NCBI RefSeq assembly: GCF_016925495.1
Contig: NZ_CP070491.1
Coordinates: 2,604,001 to 2,668,000 of the forward strand
Source: Methylococcus sp. EFPC2
Lineage (GTDB): Bacteria > Pseudomonadota > Gammaproteobacteria > Methylococcales > Methylococcaceae
Direction of reading: 5' to 3'
Length of the DNA stretch: 64,000 bases
The notes under the pieces are model-generated. The model saw only the letters and a program-made list of their open reading frames with translations, searched no databases and was not told the origin of the DNA. The translations under genes were made by a program, and so were the position numbers. Positions 31,528 to 38,596 of the stretch are shown here, piece after piece; position 1 is the stretch's first letter; each line of letters starts with the position of its first letter.

Positions 31528-31886
31528 GGGGGCGACATGGCTTCGACGTGGATCGCGAAACCCGAGGTGCATGCCGAGGTGCAGAGGACCTCGTAAAACC
31601 ATCTGCAAACAACATAGTTGCCAACGACGACAACTACGCTCTAGCTGCTTAAGTCAGCTAGCCTTCGGCCGGTAGCCCGCTTATAGGCGACCGGTACCGG
31701 GGGTAACCCAATTGTAAGCTCGCGCAGAGGCTCGTCCGGGGCCAAAGCGCTAAACAACACCGGAACCGCCGTATGTCTTCCCTGCCGCTCGGGCAGTGTA
31801 CGGTTAAATCAATAGAGTCGGATACGCATGTAGAGCCAACGGCAGAGGATTTGCGGACGCGGGTTCAATCCCCGCCGCCTCCACCA
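31528..31886 (+). ncRNA. ssrA: Transfer-messenger RNA (tmRNA)
   Basis: A 359-nt one-piece tmRNA that rescues stalled ribosomes with SmpB. The 5' GGGGGCG pairs with CGCCTCC before the encoded ACCA end. The 3' part has the T-arm GCGGGTTCAATCCCCGC, and the 5' part the family signature GACATGGCTTCGACG. The tag frame at 31620-31652, preceded by TAGTT, encodes ANDDNYALAA and a stop, differing from E. coli ANDENYALAA at one residue. Pseudoknot-forming GC segments follow. It is the left border of the accessory island. Confidence 0.97.
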
Positions 31887-32059: not shown

Positions 32060-32170
32060 ATGCGTTACTCGTCTCAAGTCAAACCGATCAGCTACGTCAA
32101 GACCAACGCCGCCGAAGTGCTGACGCGCCTTGCCGAGCAGCGCGAGCCACCAAAATTCGACCGGGTATAA
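32060..32170 (+). pseudogene. Phd/YefM-type antitoxin, N-terminal remnant
   Basis: An ATG with GGAG upstream opens a frame whose first 30 codons match the N-terminus of Phd/YefM-family antitoxins (QVKPISYVKTNAAEVLTRL, the DNA-binding part). The frame then runs into repeat R1c and stops after six foreign codons. The rest of the antitoxin is missing. About 100 bases further on, the end of a RelE/ParE toxin appears, so this is the 5' stump of a toxin-antitoxin operon. Confidence 0.8.
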
Positions 32171-32269
32171 GTGCTTGGCTTATCGAACAAGCCTATGCGG
32201 ATATCCGAGTCGTGATCCCGTTTCTCATTCGGCGGAACCCGATAGAGCCGGTTCCGCCTTACGGCCTTG
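32147..32269 (+). repeat. Dispersed repeat R1, copy c, at a deletion junction
   Basis: About 123 bp, closely similar to copy d and to the reverse copy b, with the right palindrome GGCGGAACC...GGTTCCGCC intact (32231-32258) but without the left hairpin. It lies exactly between the antitoxin stump and the toxin tail. It therefore replaced, or mediated loss of, the antitoxin C-terminus and toxin N-terminus. Confidence 0.8.
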
Positions 32270-32384
32270 TTCAAACCTTACCGTGTGATCTACCGCGTAG
32301 TGGGCGATCAGGTCATCATCTACCTGATCGCCGACGGCCGGCGTGACATGCGCGGTATTGGCGCGCAGACTGCTTGGCGCCTGA
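32270..32384 (+). pseudogene. RelE/ParE-type toxin, C-terminal remnant with frameshift
   Basis: The translation FKPYRVIYRVVGDQVIIYLIADGRRDM (here cited in parts: FKPYRVIYRV, IYLIADGRRDM) is the C-terminal core of RelE/ParE toxins. Shifting frame by one base after 32350 gives AVLARRLLGA and a stop at 32382-32384, the usual family ending. So an indel follows the loss of the N-terminal half. It cannot encode an active toxin. Confidence 0.8.
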
Positions 32385-32468
32385 ACCCCAGCAGCCTGTA
32401 CCGGTAGCTCAATGGGATCATGTTCCCCGATTCCCGCACCCGGCGATCTTGGAAAAAGGCAGGTAGAT

Positions 32469-32567
32469 CCGCCAAAATTCGACCGGCTATAAATACTTGT
32501 CTTGTCGAACAAGCCTATGTGGATATCCGAGTCGTGATCCCGTTTCCCATTACACCTTACGGCCTTG
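32469..32567 (+). repeat. Dispersed repeat R1, copy d (lacking the right palindrome)
   Basis: About 99 bp, nearly identical to copy c over the body (TTCGACCGG.TATAA, TCGAACAAGCCTATG, GGATATCCGAGTCGTGATCC). The palindrome is deleted and only CACCTTACGGCCTTGG remains. Its right end supplies the last codons and stop of the converging unknown gene. Confidence 0.75.
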
Positions 32568-33813
32568 GCCAATACACAGCCTCGGGTGGCGGTTCTAGTT
32601 CGAGGACAACCTTTGGCGCCTCCCCCTTTTCTATGTCTCCATTTTTGAACGAACATGATCTAACCACCCACCCTTCGTAAAGGCATCTGAGCATCCAATC
32701 ATCCTTTCCATCTCCGTACTCGTTTTGAAGGCTTGTCTTGCCAGCCAAAGAATCTATCAACAGGTTGGCTGGAACCTCTAGGACTATACCAGAAGCTTTG
32801 GTTGACATTATGAGCTCACCCGTAACGCGCCTGAATACTTCATTCTTATTTGGCTCGACCTTGTCCATTCGGAAGAAATACCTCCATCGATTGAAGTTAA
32901 GCTTGCCAATAGTAGCCAGATCGTCGTCAACCAGAGGCACCCTAGCCTTGGAATTTACGTATATGCCACCTCTTGCCACACGTTCAAATCTTCCGAATAT
33001 GTTATTTGTGTCCTCGATGCGCAAAACAATTGCACCCGAAATACTACGCGTGGTTTGAAAGGCCGCAAATACCGCATTTTCAATGGTCGGATTTCCCGGA
33101 CCGACCAGTGTTGACAGTGCCGGACTTTGATCGCTTCCTACGCAGATCAATCTCACACCGGTGACATCGTGCTGCTTTGATTTTGCCCGAAGTACTCGAT
33201 ATAAAGCGTGTTGCTTAACATCTTTCGGAGCCTCTTGAACCAAACCGCCTCCAGTCGATAAATACGGTCCAGATCGGTTCGGTAAATACGAAAAATCGAT
33301 AGAATACGTAGAATGCTTGATGTGTAAAGGTGAATCAGGTTCCCGCGCGATATATTCGAAGAACACGGAAACGTCGTAACCTGCCAGGAATTGTTTTTTT
33401 TGATGTAATCCGGGAAGAGAACGCACTGGCCCGGCCATGTTCGTTCTGTCTCCATCGAATTGGCACGACACCTTGAACGGAGAAATTTCGCGACGAATTG
33501 CCTCCTGTGTAATCCATTCAGCAACTGCGCGTGATTGACGCTCCTCCCTCCAAAACCGTGGGTACAGAAAGGCAACCTCGATCTAAATTGTCTTACCACT
33601 CGAAAGAGTAAGGCGAATGTCTGGACTCGCGCCCTCTTCGGGTTCGTATTCGACCTTGCCGATTCTGGAAACCTCTTCGAGAACAATTAGCTCCCAAACA
33701 GCAGCAGTTCTTGTTTCGGAATTTCTGAGGTTTCCTCGAACCTGATCCAGCCGATATCCAACAATAGACTCACAGCGTCTAAGCAACTCGGCCGCTTGCT
33801 CCTCCCGTAACAT
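32557..33813 (-). pseudogene. Unknown AT-rich gene with one in-frame amber codon
   Basis: I do not recognise the family. One frame of 418 codons runs from ATG 33813 to 32557, broken only by a TAG at 33583-33585 (codon 77). Translation continues sensibly on both sides (LTLSSGKTI, stop, IEVAFLYPRFWREER), so a CAG-to-TAG change is likely. An ATG at 33471 would give 304 residues without the N-terminal part. The stretch helix-SPDIRLTLSSGKTI-x-IEVAF resembles the PDx(n)E core of PD-(D/E)xK nucleases, but the lysine is not visible. Composition is clearly lower in GC than the flanks, so it was probably acquired. The C-terminus runs into repeat R1d and is probably truncated. Confidence 0.55.
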
Positions 33814-34008: not shown

Positions 34009-34473
34009 CTAGAGTAGCAAGAGCATTTGCCGCTCGCGCAAGGGCGACGCGACAAAACCGAAACGTTGGTAGAACGCTTCCGTCTCGGCGTCGATGGGGT
34101 GAGTGAGCAGCGCGCAGATGCCGGCCTGCTCGGCAATCATGAGTGTGCGGCGAATGGCATCCTGCAACATACCTACGCCGATACTCCGCCCCTGGTAAGC
34201 GCGATCTACCGCCAAGCGTGCAAGGATGACCACAGGAATGGGGTATTGCCCCATACCCTTGCGGATGCGCTCGGGAACTTCGAAGGTGTCGACCTGACCC
34301 ACCGTCAGGCTGAAGTAGCCGACGACTCGGTTATCCTCGCAAACCACGAAAGTCTTGGCCGAGCCGCCTGCCTGCGCCTGCCGCAACAGCCAGCCGTTTA
34401 ATGTGGGCTTGCTGCAGTCAAAGCCTTCCAGAACGTGTGTCGAATCGAGCGGTGCGGGTTCCGTCAGATTCAC
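34009..34473 (-). CDS. GNAT acetyltransferase toxin (TacT-like)
   Basis: A 154-residue GNAT protein of the DUF1778-paired type. Such toxins acetylate the amino group of aminoacyl-tRNA and block translation. Family features are LEGFDCSKPTLNGWLLRQAQ, the FSLTVGQV strand, ILARLAVDRAYQGRSIGVGML with the acetyl-CoA-binding QGRSIG, and FYQRFGFV near the end. The reading frame is intact. It overlaps the antitoxin gene by four bases in the usual antitoxin-toxin order, but the antitoxin is damaged (next entry), so this toxin should be poorly neutralised, poorly expressed or inactive. Confidence 0.88.
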   Translation of the reverse strand: MNLTEPAPLDSTHVLEGFDCSKPTLNGWLLRQAQAGGSAKTFVVCEDNRVVGYFSLTVGQVDTFEVPERIRKGMGQYPIPVVILARLAVDRAYQGRSIGVGMLQDAIRRTLMIAEQAGICALLTHPIDAETEAFYQRFGFVASPLRERQMLLLL

Positions 34474-34759
34474 TTATCAGCCCAGGGCGGGCGCCGGGCG
34501 AACAGGTCGGCCAAGCTGGCGTTGTCGGACTCGGGGCGCTCCAGCATCTCCATCCGGCTCTGGTATTGGCTGCCGGAAACTATGAAAAGACGCTGGTCGA
34601 GCAAAGTCTGTTCGGCGGCTTGGCAGGCAGCATCCAGAACGAAGTCGGTAAGCGATTTGTGAGCTACTTCGGCGGCGCGACGTAACACGGCTTACTGCTC
34701 GGGTGTGGCGCGCAACCCCAGGGGGCGGAACGTGTGGTGGATGTGGTGGCGGCAGTCAT
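34470..34759 (-). pseudogene. DUF1778 antitoxin with frameshift and in-frame stop in its DNA-binding end
   Basis: The original start is ATG 34759 behind a strong AAGGAGG site and reads MTAATTSTTRSAP. The frame then needs a one-base shift to continue as LRATPEQ, followed by TAA where a glutamine is expected, then VLRRAAEVAHKSLTDFVLDAA, the DUF1778 core. A GTG at 34688 could still give a 72-residue product lacking the N-terminal ribbon-helix-helix strand. That product would keep the C-terminal toxin-binding tail but probably not bind DNA. Confidence 0.8.
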
Positions 34760-34916
34760 GGCGGCCCTCCTTGCATAAGCACTGCTTCGGCGATGTTAGT
34801 ACGCGAGGCGCACATCGTCCAGTTGAATACCAGGTTCGGCGTTAGAAAGGCGACCGAGCTTTTGCCGTGGCTCTGATAACATGAAACATCCAGAACTATC
34901 ATGATGGAGAAGCTCT

Positions 34917-35147: not shown

Positions 35148-35825
35148 CGGAGCGGGATTATTTGACCGTCGCTGATGTGCTGGCGATGCATTCCCACCTG
35201 GTGCAGCGATACGGTGGAGCATCAGGCATCCGTGACCCCGGCACACTTGAGGCCGCATTGTTTCGCCCACAAACGGGTTACTACGACGATATTGTCGCCG
35301 AGGCGGCCACACTGCTGGAAAGCCTGGCCATCAATCATCCCTTCGTCGACGGCAACAAGCGGATAGCCTTCGCCGCTACCGATATATTCCTACGCATCAA
35401 CGGTTATCGCATTAACCACGCACCGATGGCTATTTACGCCGATATGATGAGGATGTTTGAAACCGGGACTTTCGATGCAGCGTGTCCCACGACGTGCTGT
35501 GCCTAACGGCGTTCCCTACGCCGCACGGCCGCACTTGCGGGACGGTTATTGCCTTCGGCGCCCCAGCCGTCCCCCGTCGACTCGCTCCAGCGACCTTAGA
35601 GCCGTCGCCTCCGCATCGCTCCGAGATGACTCTACGGCCTGTTCGGGATGCCTTGCAGGTCACCTACGGACGCAATAAAGCCTGCGCCCTGCGGTGCCCC
35701 GCCCGGCCCTGGGCCTTCTGGGGGGCATGGAAAACATCCCGGTCTACCCGCTGCGCGGCTGACCTTTGTTTTCCAGCATTGCCCACCTGGAGCCGTGGCT
35801 TCGAGAGAGGGTGGTCGAAAAATAA
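35144..35825 (+). pseudogene. doc: Doc/Fic-type toxin split by a 301-bp insertion
   Basis: Doc phosphorylates EF-Tu and stops translation. Codons 1-111 (35144-35476) read LTVADVLAMHSHLVQRYGG, IRDPGTLEAALFRPQ and the Fic motif HPFVDGNKR, ending with MRMFETGTFD. The frame then enters foreign sequence and stops after nine codons at 35506. At 35778 the missing end appears: IAHLEPWLRERVVEK and TAA (35823-35825). Joining 35476 to 35778 is exactly in frame and gives 126 residues, the length of phage P1 Doc. The shortened 120-residue product keeps the catalytic motif but loses the last helix. Start is GTG overlapping the antitoxin stop. Confidence 0.85.
35477..35777 (+). mobile_element. R2 element: 301-bp non-coding insertion in doc
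   Basis: Bounds are set by the in-frame rejoining of doc. It carries no sensible reading frame but several inverted repeats: CAGC...GCTG close to the left end, GGCG-TTCCCTA-CGCC at about 35508, GGGACGG...CCGTCCC at about 35536, and GGAAAAC...GTTTTCC (about 35728 to 35774) at the right end. No target duplication is evident under the in-frame model. Its right 128 bp recur at 38469-38596 with about eight differences. Terminal structure without target duplication resembles IS200/IS605-derived non-autonomous elements; this is inference. Confidence 0.75.
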
Positions 35826-36009: not shown

Positions 36010-37428
36010 TCACCCACCTAAGCTTTCAGTACTTCCTTCTTGCCTAGTCCCTTCCTGCCACTGCGCATATTCCAGAGGCCGCAAACCGAAACGAATAGCG
36101 TTGCCCGCGTGCAGACCTTTGAACTCCGTCAAGACCAGTTCGACGAAACGCTCTCGGTCGTTCTCCGCAACAGTGGCGGGAATAGTGGTCCGGATCGACC
36201 CTTCGCTGACCGGCATTCCCCCGCGCACAACGGCAACGACGGCCTCCGTCAATGAATTGCGATAACGCAAACGGAAGGTGTCCGGCGGCACCAGATGCTG
36301 TTGCACGGCAACGTACTGCTGGCAAGACCGTTCATAAGCCCACACGAACACATCGCGCAGCAACTCGATGCGAGTAAGTTCATACACGCCCAGAACGCCA
36401 TCGACGTAGGCTTGCTGCGGCACATCAATGAAGGAAAGCGGACAGAGATTGTGGCGAATGAAAGGAATATTGGCGGCCAGGCGCGAGACTCGTTTGTTCA
36501 CATCCTCGAACGGTTGCAGGTAAGGGAGATGCACCATCAGGAAAAAAGCCTGTTCGAAGGGATCGCGAATTTCCGACGCCATAATGACCACGATGCCAAA
36601 TAACTCTTCCAGCCGCTGCGGCATAGCGATCGGCAGATAGACGCTGCCGCCGATATCCACCGGATGGTTGCGAATGCGGCCACAAGCCAGCGGGTCAGGC
36701 AGCAAGCCATCGGAAAGGAATGCGTGCAGCGCGACGATGGTTTCCGCATTGACTCCGGCATGTTCGGTATCACGGACCAAATATTCGATCGCGGCTTTGT
36801 GGTTGAGGATCATCTGGGTTTCGAGCGCATCCTTGCCTTCTGCGGCCTGGCCGAATTCGATCAGTCGCTCGGTATCGAGCCGACTGTAGGTGTTGCCTTC
36901 CAGACGCGAGGACGCCCATGAAAGATCAATCATCAGGCGGTTCAAAATGTCACGTGCGAAGGTTCCGGCACGCTGTTGGCTTGCCGAGGAACGCCCCAGC
37001 AGGTGCAGTTGGGCGCGCAACGATTCCGGGAGATAGTAGGTCAGGTTGGGGTGATACCGCTCCAGAAACTCGACTTTGTAACTGACGGGCTGTCTTTGCT
37101 GGCGTGGCTGGCGGATGTACGCCCTGATCTCTGCGCCTTCTGGTGAGGTGGGAACATACACCTCGCTGTTGGCCTGGACTATATCGGCTGCCTCGGCAAT
37201 CACCGAGACGCCATTGACTGGCGAAATCCGATACTTTATCGCGCGTCCCTCGCCTTCTAGCTTGACCCGCATCTGCTCAACCAGTGTGGCCAGGCGGCGC
37301 TGCAGAGTGCGGCGGGACATGACCATAGCCATTGCCTGTGAAAGCCTGTCGATGCCAATGCCATCCGGGTACTGGCCGATCAGTTCGACGAGTCGATCCA
37401 AATCCTGTGCTGAAACGAGCTTGGGCAT
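36010..37428 (-). CDS. Fic family protein with winged helix and self-inhibitory motif
   Basis: A 472-residue intact Fic protein, probably an AMP-transferase for an unknown target. The N-terminal 100 residues look like a winged helix (GIDRLSQAMAMVMSRRTLQRRLATL). At about 175-182 the inhibitory-helix motif SSRLEGN appears, which in class II Fic proteins blocks ATP binding. The catalytic segment at about 298-318 is HLPYLQPFEDVNKRVSRLAAN, where HxxYL-PFEDxNKR replaces the usual HPFxxGNGR. This DUF4172-free subgroup is known in bacteria, but the target is not. An inverted-repeat operator directly upstream suggests autoregulation by its own DNA-binding domain. Confidence 0.88.
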   Translation of the reverse strand: MPKLVSAQDLDRLVELIGQYPDGIGIDRLSQAMAMVMSRRTLQRRLATLVEQMRVKLEGEGRAIKYRISPVNGVSVIAEAADIVQANSEVYVPTSPEGAEIRAYIRQPRQQRQPVSYKVEFLERYHPNLTYYLPESLRAQLHLLGRSSASQQRAGTFARDILNRLMIDLSWASSRLEGNTYSRLDTERLIEFGQAAEGKDALETQMILNHKAAIEYLVRDTEHAGVNAETIVALHAFLSDGLLPDPLACGRIRNHPVDIGGSVYLPIAMPQRLEELFGIVVIMASEIRDPFEQAFFLMVHLPYLQPFEDVNKRVSRLAANIPFIRHNLCPLSFIDVPQQAYVDGVLGVYELTRIELLRDVFVWAYERSCQQYVAVQQHLVPPDTFRLRYRNSLTEAVVAVVRGGMPVSEGSIRTTIPATVAENDRERFVELVLTEFKGLHAGNAIRFGLRPLEYAQWQEGTRQEGSTESLGG

Positions 37429-38452: not shown

Positions 38453-38468
38453 TATTCGGTTGTCAGAG

Positions 38469-38596
38469 GCCTTGCAGGTCACCTGCGGACGCAATAAAGC
38501 CTGCACCCTTCGGTGCCCCACCCGGCCCTGCGCCTTCTGGGGGGTATGGAAAGTATCCCGGTCTACCCGCTGCGCGGCTGACCTTTGTTTTCCAGC
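38469..38596 (+). repeat. Repeat R2, partial copy (right 128 bp)
   Basis: Same orientation and nearly the same sequence as 35650-35777 (about eight differences in 128 by eye), ending at the identical TTTTCCAGC. The left 173 bp of the full element are absent. It abuts the first codons of the converging hypothetical gene. The two direct copies bracket the fic region and could support its loss by recombination. Confidence 0.85.

What the first reader, a model, noticed from the sequence alone, without database searches (positions are those of the whole stretch)
32557..33813. AT-rich orphan gene with a single amber codon, possible decayed nuclease-type defence gene
Both sides of TAG 33583-33585 read as one continuous protein (418 codons). 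The N-terminal piece has an SPDI...IEVAF arrangement reminiscent of the PD-(D/E)xK core. Its composition differs from the neighbours, and it sits in a TA-rich island. The family is unknown to me.
Basis: partly seen in the sequence, partly recalled or inferred. Interest (0 to 1): 0.55.

Follow-up and report, generated by a model that had tools for sequence, protein, structure and literature searches.

The report
Broken nuclease-like gene in island
A gene cut short by one stop codon belongs to a rare, unstudied family of mobile proteins that look like DNA-cutting enzymes, some of which lie near known or suspected anti-virus genes in other bacteria; this copy is probably dead.

Summary
Window 32557-33813 (-) is one 418-codon gene with a single in-frame TAG at 33583-33585 (codon 77), not expected by chance. 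An intact relative on a Polaromonas plasmid (39% identity) starts at the equivalent first codon, so the gene does not begin at 33471. Two branches are joined by profile comparison; branch 2 matches PHROG 33687 (function unknown). All nine proteins share W-E, P-D, an acid and K-x-x-Q. Residues 1-129 fold, at moderate confidence, in the helix/strand order of restriction-endonuclease-like domains, but no solved structure matches significantly and the motif III lysine is absent in nine of nine. Strong defence-gene matches lie near three of five plasmid copies whose neighbours I scanned. Best reading: a decayed copy of a restriction-endonuclease-like family without the motif III lysine, probably a defence effector when intact. 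The stop separates motif II from motif III, so the product should be inactive. Fold, nuclease activity and defence role are inferred.

The parts
32557..33813 (-). Whole broken gene, 418 codons plus TAA, one in-frame TAG
   Evidence: intact full-length relative on a Polaromonas plasmid
33583..33585 (-). Amber codon 77, between motif II and motif III
33586..33813 (-). 5' piece, 76 codons: helix A (motif I) and PD strand (motif II)
33691..33696 (-). Trp40-Glu41, motif I, same in 9 of 9 aligned proteins (this copy included)
33619..33624 (-). Pro64-Asp65, motif II, same in 9 of 9
33577..33579 (-). Glu79, motif III acid (E in 3, D in 6 of 9); where the lysine is expected (residue 81) there is T in 7 and A in 2
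33172..33183 (-). Lys211-x-x-Gln214, same in 9 of 9; candidate replacement lysine (guess)
32557..33471 (-). 304-codon open piece after the stop (first listed start GTG); lacks motifs I-III
32459..32572 (.). Copies of repeats (32459-32551 and 32550-32572) that abut and overlap the last codons of the gene; the larger one belongs to a dispersed genomic repeat
31528..31886 (+). tmRNA gene (tag ANDDNYALAA) about 0.7 kb from the gene's 3' end (context)
34009..34688 (-). Neighbouring TacA/GNAT toxin-antitoxin pair (context)

Best explanation
The locus is a decayed copy of a small, mobile, uncharacterised protein family with an N-terminal restriction-endonuclease-like domain. In intact members Glu41 (helix A), Asp65 (PD strand) and Glu/Asp79 (third strand) would bind metal, and the lysine missing from motif III (Thr or Ala there) would be supplied from elsewhere, best candidate the invariant Lys211-x-x-Gln214 after the first domain. 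The intact protein would act as a nucleic-acid-cutting effector of plasmid and island defence loci. Here one amber codon separates Asp65 from Glu79, so neither piece holds the whole active site. Shown: the gene, the stop, the family, the invariant residues, the neighbours. Inferred: the fold (one moderate model plus motifs), nuclease activity, the migrated lysine, the defence role, loss of function.
For: One frame with one internal stop. Intact relative of similar length and the same start. Branch 1 against branch 2 by hhalign: probability 96.6, E 7e-10, 0 of 60 column-shuffled controls as good. Motif residues kept in 9 of 9 apart from the E/D exchange at 79. N-terminal model pLDDT 79, pTM 0.74, core order helix-strand-strand-strand-helix-strand. 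33 of the 50 listed Foldseek PDB rows are nucleases with this or a shared fold (by printed name or my recall; about 14 different proteins), none significant. Threonine in place of the motif III lysine, with probable migration to a later helix, is described for other families (PMC1913061, passages only). Neighbours of relatives: Mokosh MkoA and MkoB beside the Agrobacterium copy, PDC-S31 next to the Sphingobium copy, a SIR2 protein and HEC-05 about 2 and 4 kb from the Allorhizobium copy, a weak TIR-effector match upstream of the Polaromonas copy. A more distant family (hhalign probability 89.6, E 1.9e-6, 0 of 60 controls) is the last gene of a tight gene run that begins with an annotated CBASS cyclase on an Acinetobacter plasmid.
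Against: Motif III lysine absent in 9 of 9. Foldseek has no PDB or viral match with E of 0.001 or less; the nuclease rows in the PDB list have TM-scores under 0.4 and rmsd of about 8 to 18 angstrom, so they do not superpose well. VIA-align's best rows are ClpB/ClpC C-terminal domains (Z 4.3), with restriction-like folds at Z 2.7 to 3.9. The N-terminal model rests on one of five single-sequence AF2 models (the others have pLDDT 43-50); the full-length model was useless (pLDDT 33). K211 lies about 130 residues after motif III, so its role is a guess. The 12 neighbours scanned were chosen by me from annotation, in five plasmid loci, without a control; 5 of the 12 matched nothing. Pfam saw nothing in the TIR-like protein. 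G368 has metabolic neighbours (3 scanned).
Confidence: 0.55

Rival explanations
1. The family has a restriction-endonuclease-like fold but is not a nuclease: it is a non-catalytic binding or partner protein.
For: No motif III lysine in 9 of 9; residue 81 is Thr or Ala. No significant nuclease fold match.
Against: Motif I, II and III acids are kept in 9 of 9, from Pseudomonadota plasmids to a cyanobacterial one, which a purely structural role would not need; lysine-to-threonine exchange with migration is described elsewhere (PMC1913061, passages).
Confidence: 0.25
2. The gene is mobile cargo with a role other than phage defence (for example plasmid competition, or partner of a toxin-antitoxin system).
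For: The window copy sits among toxin-antitoxin modules; none of three G368 neighbours scanned with Pfam is a defence gene; the Sinorhizobium copy lies near mobC, parA and recombinase genes.
Against: Strong PADLOC matches (E below 1e-30) in three of the five plasmid loci where neighbours were scanned.
Confidence: 0.25
3. The stop is a sequencing or assembly error and the gene is intact.
For: One stop is the only lesion seen; the rest of the frame is clean.
Against: The host assembly has 3 contigs and is rated 100% complete. The neighbouring TacA frame also carries an in-frame stop, and the Leptolyngbya relative is broken as well. No reads could be checked.
Confidence: 0.1
4. The stop is tolerated: amber read-through, or two separate working pieces with re-initiation near 33471.
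For: The 304-codon piece has a listed start at 33471; similarity continues after the stop (121 of 338 identical).
Against: None of the 8 relatives begins at 33471; all carry the N-terminal domain. The stop splits the active-site motifs. Read-through signals were not searched for, and suppressor tRNAs were looked for only in the window (none among 2 genes found).
Confidence: 0.06

Closest known systems
PHROG 33687 (function unknown)
   Same: Branch 2 relatives match it; G1311's over most of its length (E 1e-34); 5 of the 8 members of alignment A3 match, best E 2e-45
   Different: The window protein does not match it at E of 1 or less; it belongs to branch 1
PD-(D/E)XK nuclease superfamily, lysine-migrated families such as DUF1626 (PMC1913061, passages only)
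   Same: Motif I Glu, motif II PD, motif III acid, Thr at the lysine position in 7 of 9, predicted core order
   Different: No Pfam match in the 5 of 9 members scanned; the candidate lysine is about 130 residues later
Unnamed 'RPDF...YLEA...K' hypothetical proteins on plasmids of Pseudomonas, Acinetobacter, Cellulosimicrobium and Mycolicibacterium (alignment A6)
   Same: Profile similarity over about 165 columns covering helix A, PD and the acid strand; E38, P65-D66, E79 and K209 invariant in the 4 aligned
   Different: Very divergent; hhalign's alignment ends before the K motif; branch 2 alone is only weakly similar (probability 22); one member ends a gene run with a CBASS cyclase, not seen for the present family
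Mokosh, HEC-05, PDC-S31, SIR2 proteins
   Same: In the neighbourhood of relatives
   Different: The window protein matches no PADLOC model; a neighbour of, not shown to be part of, these systems

Membership tests
[quoted passage not shown]
   Order H32-49 E53-57 E65-69 E75-82 H91-108 E113-120 fits, but only one of five single-sequence models is confident and no solved structure matches significantly
PD-(D/E)XK superfamily | Motif I acid, motif II PD, motif III acid | tested here: met
   E41 and P64-D65 in 9 of 9; residue 79 is E in 3 and D in 6
PD-(D/E)XK superfamily | Lysine two residues after the motif III acid | tested here: not met
   T in 7, A in 2 of 9; so it is not filed as a canonical member
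PD-(D/E)XK superfamily | Metal-dependent nuclease activity | not testable with these tools
   Needs an assay on an intact relative
PHROG 33687 | Match to the PHROG profile | tested here: not met
   Window protein: no match at E up to 1. 5 of the 8 members of A3 do match; G368 was not scanned
One family with branch 2 | Profile-profile similarity beyond controls | tested here: met
   hhalign probability 96.6, E 6.8e-10 over 221 columns; reversed and 60 shuffled controls far lower. With single-branch HMMs P0001 and P0002 and five branch 2 proteins stand above shuffles, but the Leptolyngbya protein and G368 do not
Known anti-phage defence systems (PADLOC-DB 2.0.0) | Match of the protein to a model | tested here: not met
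   No match for the 4 of 9 members scanned: window, Polaromonas, Leptolyngbya, G368; the other 5 were not scanned
Known anti-phage defence systems (PADLOC-DB 2.0.0) | Location with defence genes | tested here: inconclusive
   7 of 12 chosen neighbours in 5 plasmid loci match at E of 0.001 or less, 4 of them below 1e-30; choice not random, no control

The most novel reading that the evidence does not exclude
The two branches and the distant CBASS-linked plasmid family are one undescribed superfamily of restriction-endonuclease-like effectors whose catalytic lysine moved out of motif III into a later K-x-x-Q (or K-x-x-x-Y-G) helix; they are interchangeable nuclease effectors of plasmid and island immunity, some driven by cyclic-oligonucleotide signalling, and the window shows one being lost.
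Probability: 0.25. Interest if true: 0.6.

Novelty: new variant of a known kind. Interest (0 to 1): 0.4.

Why it matters
No credible Pfam (5 of 9 members scanned), NCBIfam (8 of 9) or PADLOC (4 of 9) match was found for the family, it is rare in the genomes searched, it is mobile, and several copies lie near recognised or candidate defence genes. If intact relatives cut nucleic acid, they add an effector family with an unusual active site, and the more distant CBASS-linked relatives would place it in signalling-based immunity. The window copy itself matters mainly as the lead to the family and as an example of decay in a toxin-antitoxin island.

Tried and rejected
Family libraries gave no credible match for the window protein: Pfam, PADLOC, NCBIfam, PHROGs; PDB by sequence gave none for it or for the profiles (one exosialidase row at E 1.8). 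Chance-level rows were dropped: TMEM117, PadR, papilin, and an acylphosphatase model that one of 8 members matched at E 0.008. Two genome-contig scans and seven viral-contig scans found no relative; phage records gave none by tblastn; E. coli genomes gave none for the G368 copy by DNA.

Weak rows in genome searches (loci L003-L009, L012, L014, L015; E 0.0012-0.1, short stretches) were judged chance and dropped. L013 (G904, E 3e-4) is a 96-residue protein that shares only the first about 30 residues (45% identity over 31) and was left out of the family.

The full-length single-sequence AF2 model was useless (pLDDT 33). In the viral fold library 17 of the 50 listed rows carry a nuclease, resolvase or YqaJ-type name, none significant; the one row with low rmsd (2.5 over 72 columns) is an uncharacterised 79-residue phage protein.

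Synteny at the tmRNA gene was sought in eight relatives (one stretch only 4.3 kb long). None of 13 window proteins from around it matched there at E 1e-6, so the empty site could not be shown. No second copy of the tmRNA 3' end was found in the window or, at E 0.001, in the host genome, so tmRNA-targeted integration is not shown.

A Shine-Dalgarno-like AGGAGG lies 29 bases before GTG 33471 and was rejected as too far. A promoter/terminator scan gave counts no higher than shuffles. The first all-against-all BLAST used gapped rows for three proteins and was repeated cleanly. There a branch 2 profile found P0001 (1.4e-7) and P0002 (3.4e-5) but not the Leptolyngbya protein (2.9, within shuffles), and a branch 1 profile found five branch 2 proteins (6.5e-13 to 2.1e-5) but not G368 (0.044, best shuffle 0.049).

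Papers: searches (terms on tmRNA islands, DUF2971, Mokosh/HEC-05, DUF6602, restriction-endonuclease-like lysine migration, PDC-S31) listed no description of the family; no search named PHROG 33687 or the relatives' accessions, so this does not show that none exists. Only PMC1913061 was opened (passages found by term); all others were seen as listings with the start of the abstract.

Full report
What is there. The minus-strand frame 33813-32557 is one gene of 418 codons with one TAG at codon 77 (33583-33585). Composition predicts about 23 stops in such a frame; 0 of 20,000 shuffles had so few, and the other five frames hold 10-22 stops each. GC is 48% against 60-69% in most 1-kb steps of the window. 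The gene's 3' end lies about 0.7 kb after the tmRNA gene (31528-31886), in an AT-rich stretch with a TacA/GNAT pair, a Doc/Fic gene after a small RHH-like gene (weak matches only) and a Fic protein; the Fic protein also matches PADLOC's PDC-S04 and SoFic models. The host assembly has 4.56 Mb in 3 contigs and holds one copy.

Relatives. Only the host matched among 61 genomes of its family and order. The single protein gave no credible second match in 398 genomes of the phylum (7 rows at E 0.028-0.1). tblastn on plasmids found an intact 424-residue protein on Polaromonas sp. JS666 plasmid 1, identical at 164 of 420 aligned positions and starting at the equivalent first codon, and a Leptolyngbya plasmid gene whose frame also holds one in-frame TAG, at another place, and ends about 100 residues earlier than the others. 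That protein's own search gave full-length proteins on plasmids of Sphingobium, Allorhizobium, Agrobacterium and two Sinorhizobium plasmids (5 records). The joint profile found one more in G368 (E 1.1e-59; with the host, 2 of 398 genomes). The family as aligned has nine proteins; the second Sinorhizobium record was not used.

Two branches, one family. Branch 1 (window, Polaromonas, Leptolyngbya) against branch 2 (G1311, Sphingobium, Allorhizobium, Agrobacterium, Sinorhizobium) gives hhalign probability 96.6 and E 6.8e-10 over 221 columns. The reversed profile scored 16.8 and the best of 60 column-shuffled profiles 24.0, against 78.6 observed. Plain HMM tests agree for most members but do not separate the Leptolyngbya protein or G368 from shuffles across branches; these two are tied in through their own branch. 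Branch 2 matches PHROG 33687, function unknown (5 of 8 members of A3). No credible match was found to Pfam (5 of 9 members scanned), NCBIfam (8 of 9) or PADLOC (4 of 9).

Anatomy. All nine share W40-E41, P64-D65, an acid at 79 (E in 3, D in 6), P134, K211 and Q214; residue 81, where a PD-(D/E)XK enzyme has its lysine, is T in 7 and A in 2. Residues 1-129 alone gave a model with pLDDT 79 and pTM 0.74 and the order helix 32-49, strands 53-57, 65-69, 75-82, helix 91-108, strand 113-120, which is the order PMC1913061 gives for this fold (passages). Against it: the other four models had pLDDT 43-50. Foldseek found no PDB match with E of 0.001 or less. 33 of its 50 listed rows are nucleases with this or a shared fold (printed names, plus my recall for CinB, RecU, AddAB/AdnAB and the tRNA-splicing enzymes), but these are about 14 different proteins, many rows repeat one protein, TM-scores are under 0.4 and rmsd about 8-18 angstrom, and I did not check which domain of the large chains was aligned. 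VIA-align ranked ClpB/ClpC C-terminal domains first at Z 4.3 and restriction-like folds at 2.7-3.9; its notes call Z under 8 common. No control for these proportions was run. The fold is therefore likely, not proved.

Missing lysine. PMC1913061 (passages) reports families in which the motif III lysine is often replaced by threonine and has probably moved to a later helix (DUF1626 and others). The present family has the same threonine in 7 of 9. Its only invariant lysine is K211, in K-x-x-Q, about 130 residues downstream; whether it reaches the active site is unknown.

Neighbours. Twelve neighbours in five plasmid loci, chosen by me from the annotation, were scanned with PADLOC; 7 matched at E of 0.001 or less and 5 did not. 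Strong: MkoB (2e-83) and MkoA (3e-207) beside the Agrobacterium gene, HEC-05 (1e-218) about 4 kb from the Allorhizobium gene, PDC-S31 (5e-38) next to the Sphingobium gene. Weaker: a SIR2 protein (2e-8) about 2 kb from the Allorhizobium gene, a TIR-effector match (1e-6; nothing in Pfam) 1.2 kb upstream of the Polaromonas gene, and an E2 match (3e-4) next to the Sinorhizobium gene. The G1311 copy follows genes that match phage endolysin, HNH and tail-chaperone families. Three G368 neighbours are a racemase, an NmrA-like and a LysR protein. Neighbours of the Leptolyngbya, G1311 and G368 copies were not scanned with PADLOC, and no control loci were run.

A wider family. From memory I knew hypothetical proteins with an RPDF...YVEA...K pattern; a typed consensus found real ones on plasmids (8 records). 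An alignment of four of them matches the family alignment A3 with hhalign probability 89.6, E 1.9e-6, 0 of 60 shuffled controls as good; against branch 1 alone the probability is 77.1 and against branch 2 alone 22.2. On one A. baumannii plasmid this gene is the last of a tight run that begins with a CBASS cyclase by the record's annotation, and the same order with a shortened copy recurs on an A. chinensis plasmid. Of 20 plasmid records with a match, 7 cover at least 80% of the protein. A second A. baumannii copy is annotated as two pieces between transposases, and the Pseudomonas, Cellulosimicrobium and Mycolicibacterium copies have no annotated CBASS gene in the stretches read.

How it probably works, and what is lost here. 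In intact members the first domain would bind metal through E41, D65 and E/D79 and cut nucleic acid when a defence signal or partner calls for it. In the window the stop falls between D65 and E79; the 76-residue piece lacks motif III and the 304-codon piece lacks all three motifs, so neither should work. The frame after the stop is otherwise clean, which suggests a recent event. The neighbouring TacA frame also contains a stop, and two of the nine family genes are broken. Whether the stop is real in the host cannot be checked without reads.

Verdict. Observation confirmed; 'decayed' well supported; 'nuclease-type' likely; 'defence' plausible from neighbours of relatives. The window copy is modest in interest; the undescribed family is the more interesting part.

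Noticed in passing
window 34470-34775 (-): The TacA-like antitoxin frame has an in-frame TAA just before its first usable start (Pfam match begins at model position 13 of 80), so its N-terminal end seems cut off while its GNAT partner is open.
   Followed up: partly
window 32137-32229 and 32459-32551: Two copies (87% identical) of a repeat; parts of the 32137-32580 stretch match 16 further places in the host genome. The second copy abuts the 3' end of the broken gene.
   Followed up: partly
window 35647-35777 and 38466-38596: A 131-base direct repeat (93%) on either side of the Fic gene region.
   Followed up: no
window 36010-37428 (-): Fic-domain protein with matches to PADLOC SoFic and PDC-S04 models in the same island.
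   Followed up: no
L013 1492-1782 (+): A 96-residue protein shares only the first about 30 residues of the family, perhaps a separate small N-terminal module.
   Followed up: partly
L050 8506-8532: In relative G001 a 27-base copy of the tmRNA 3' end lies about 7 kb downstream of the tmRNA gene, as expected of an inserted element.
   Followed up: no
L059 2115-6433 (-): Gene run annotated as CBASS cyclase, hypothetical, AAA ATPase, DUF6602 protein, ending in a distant relative of the family; no paper in the library holds the term DUF6602.
   Followed up: partly
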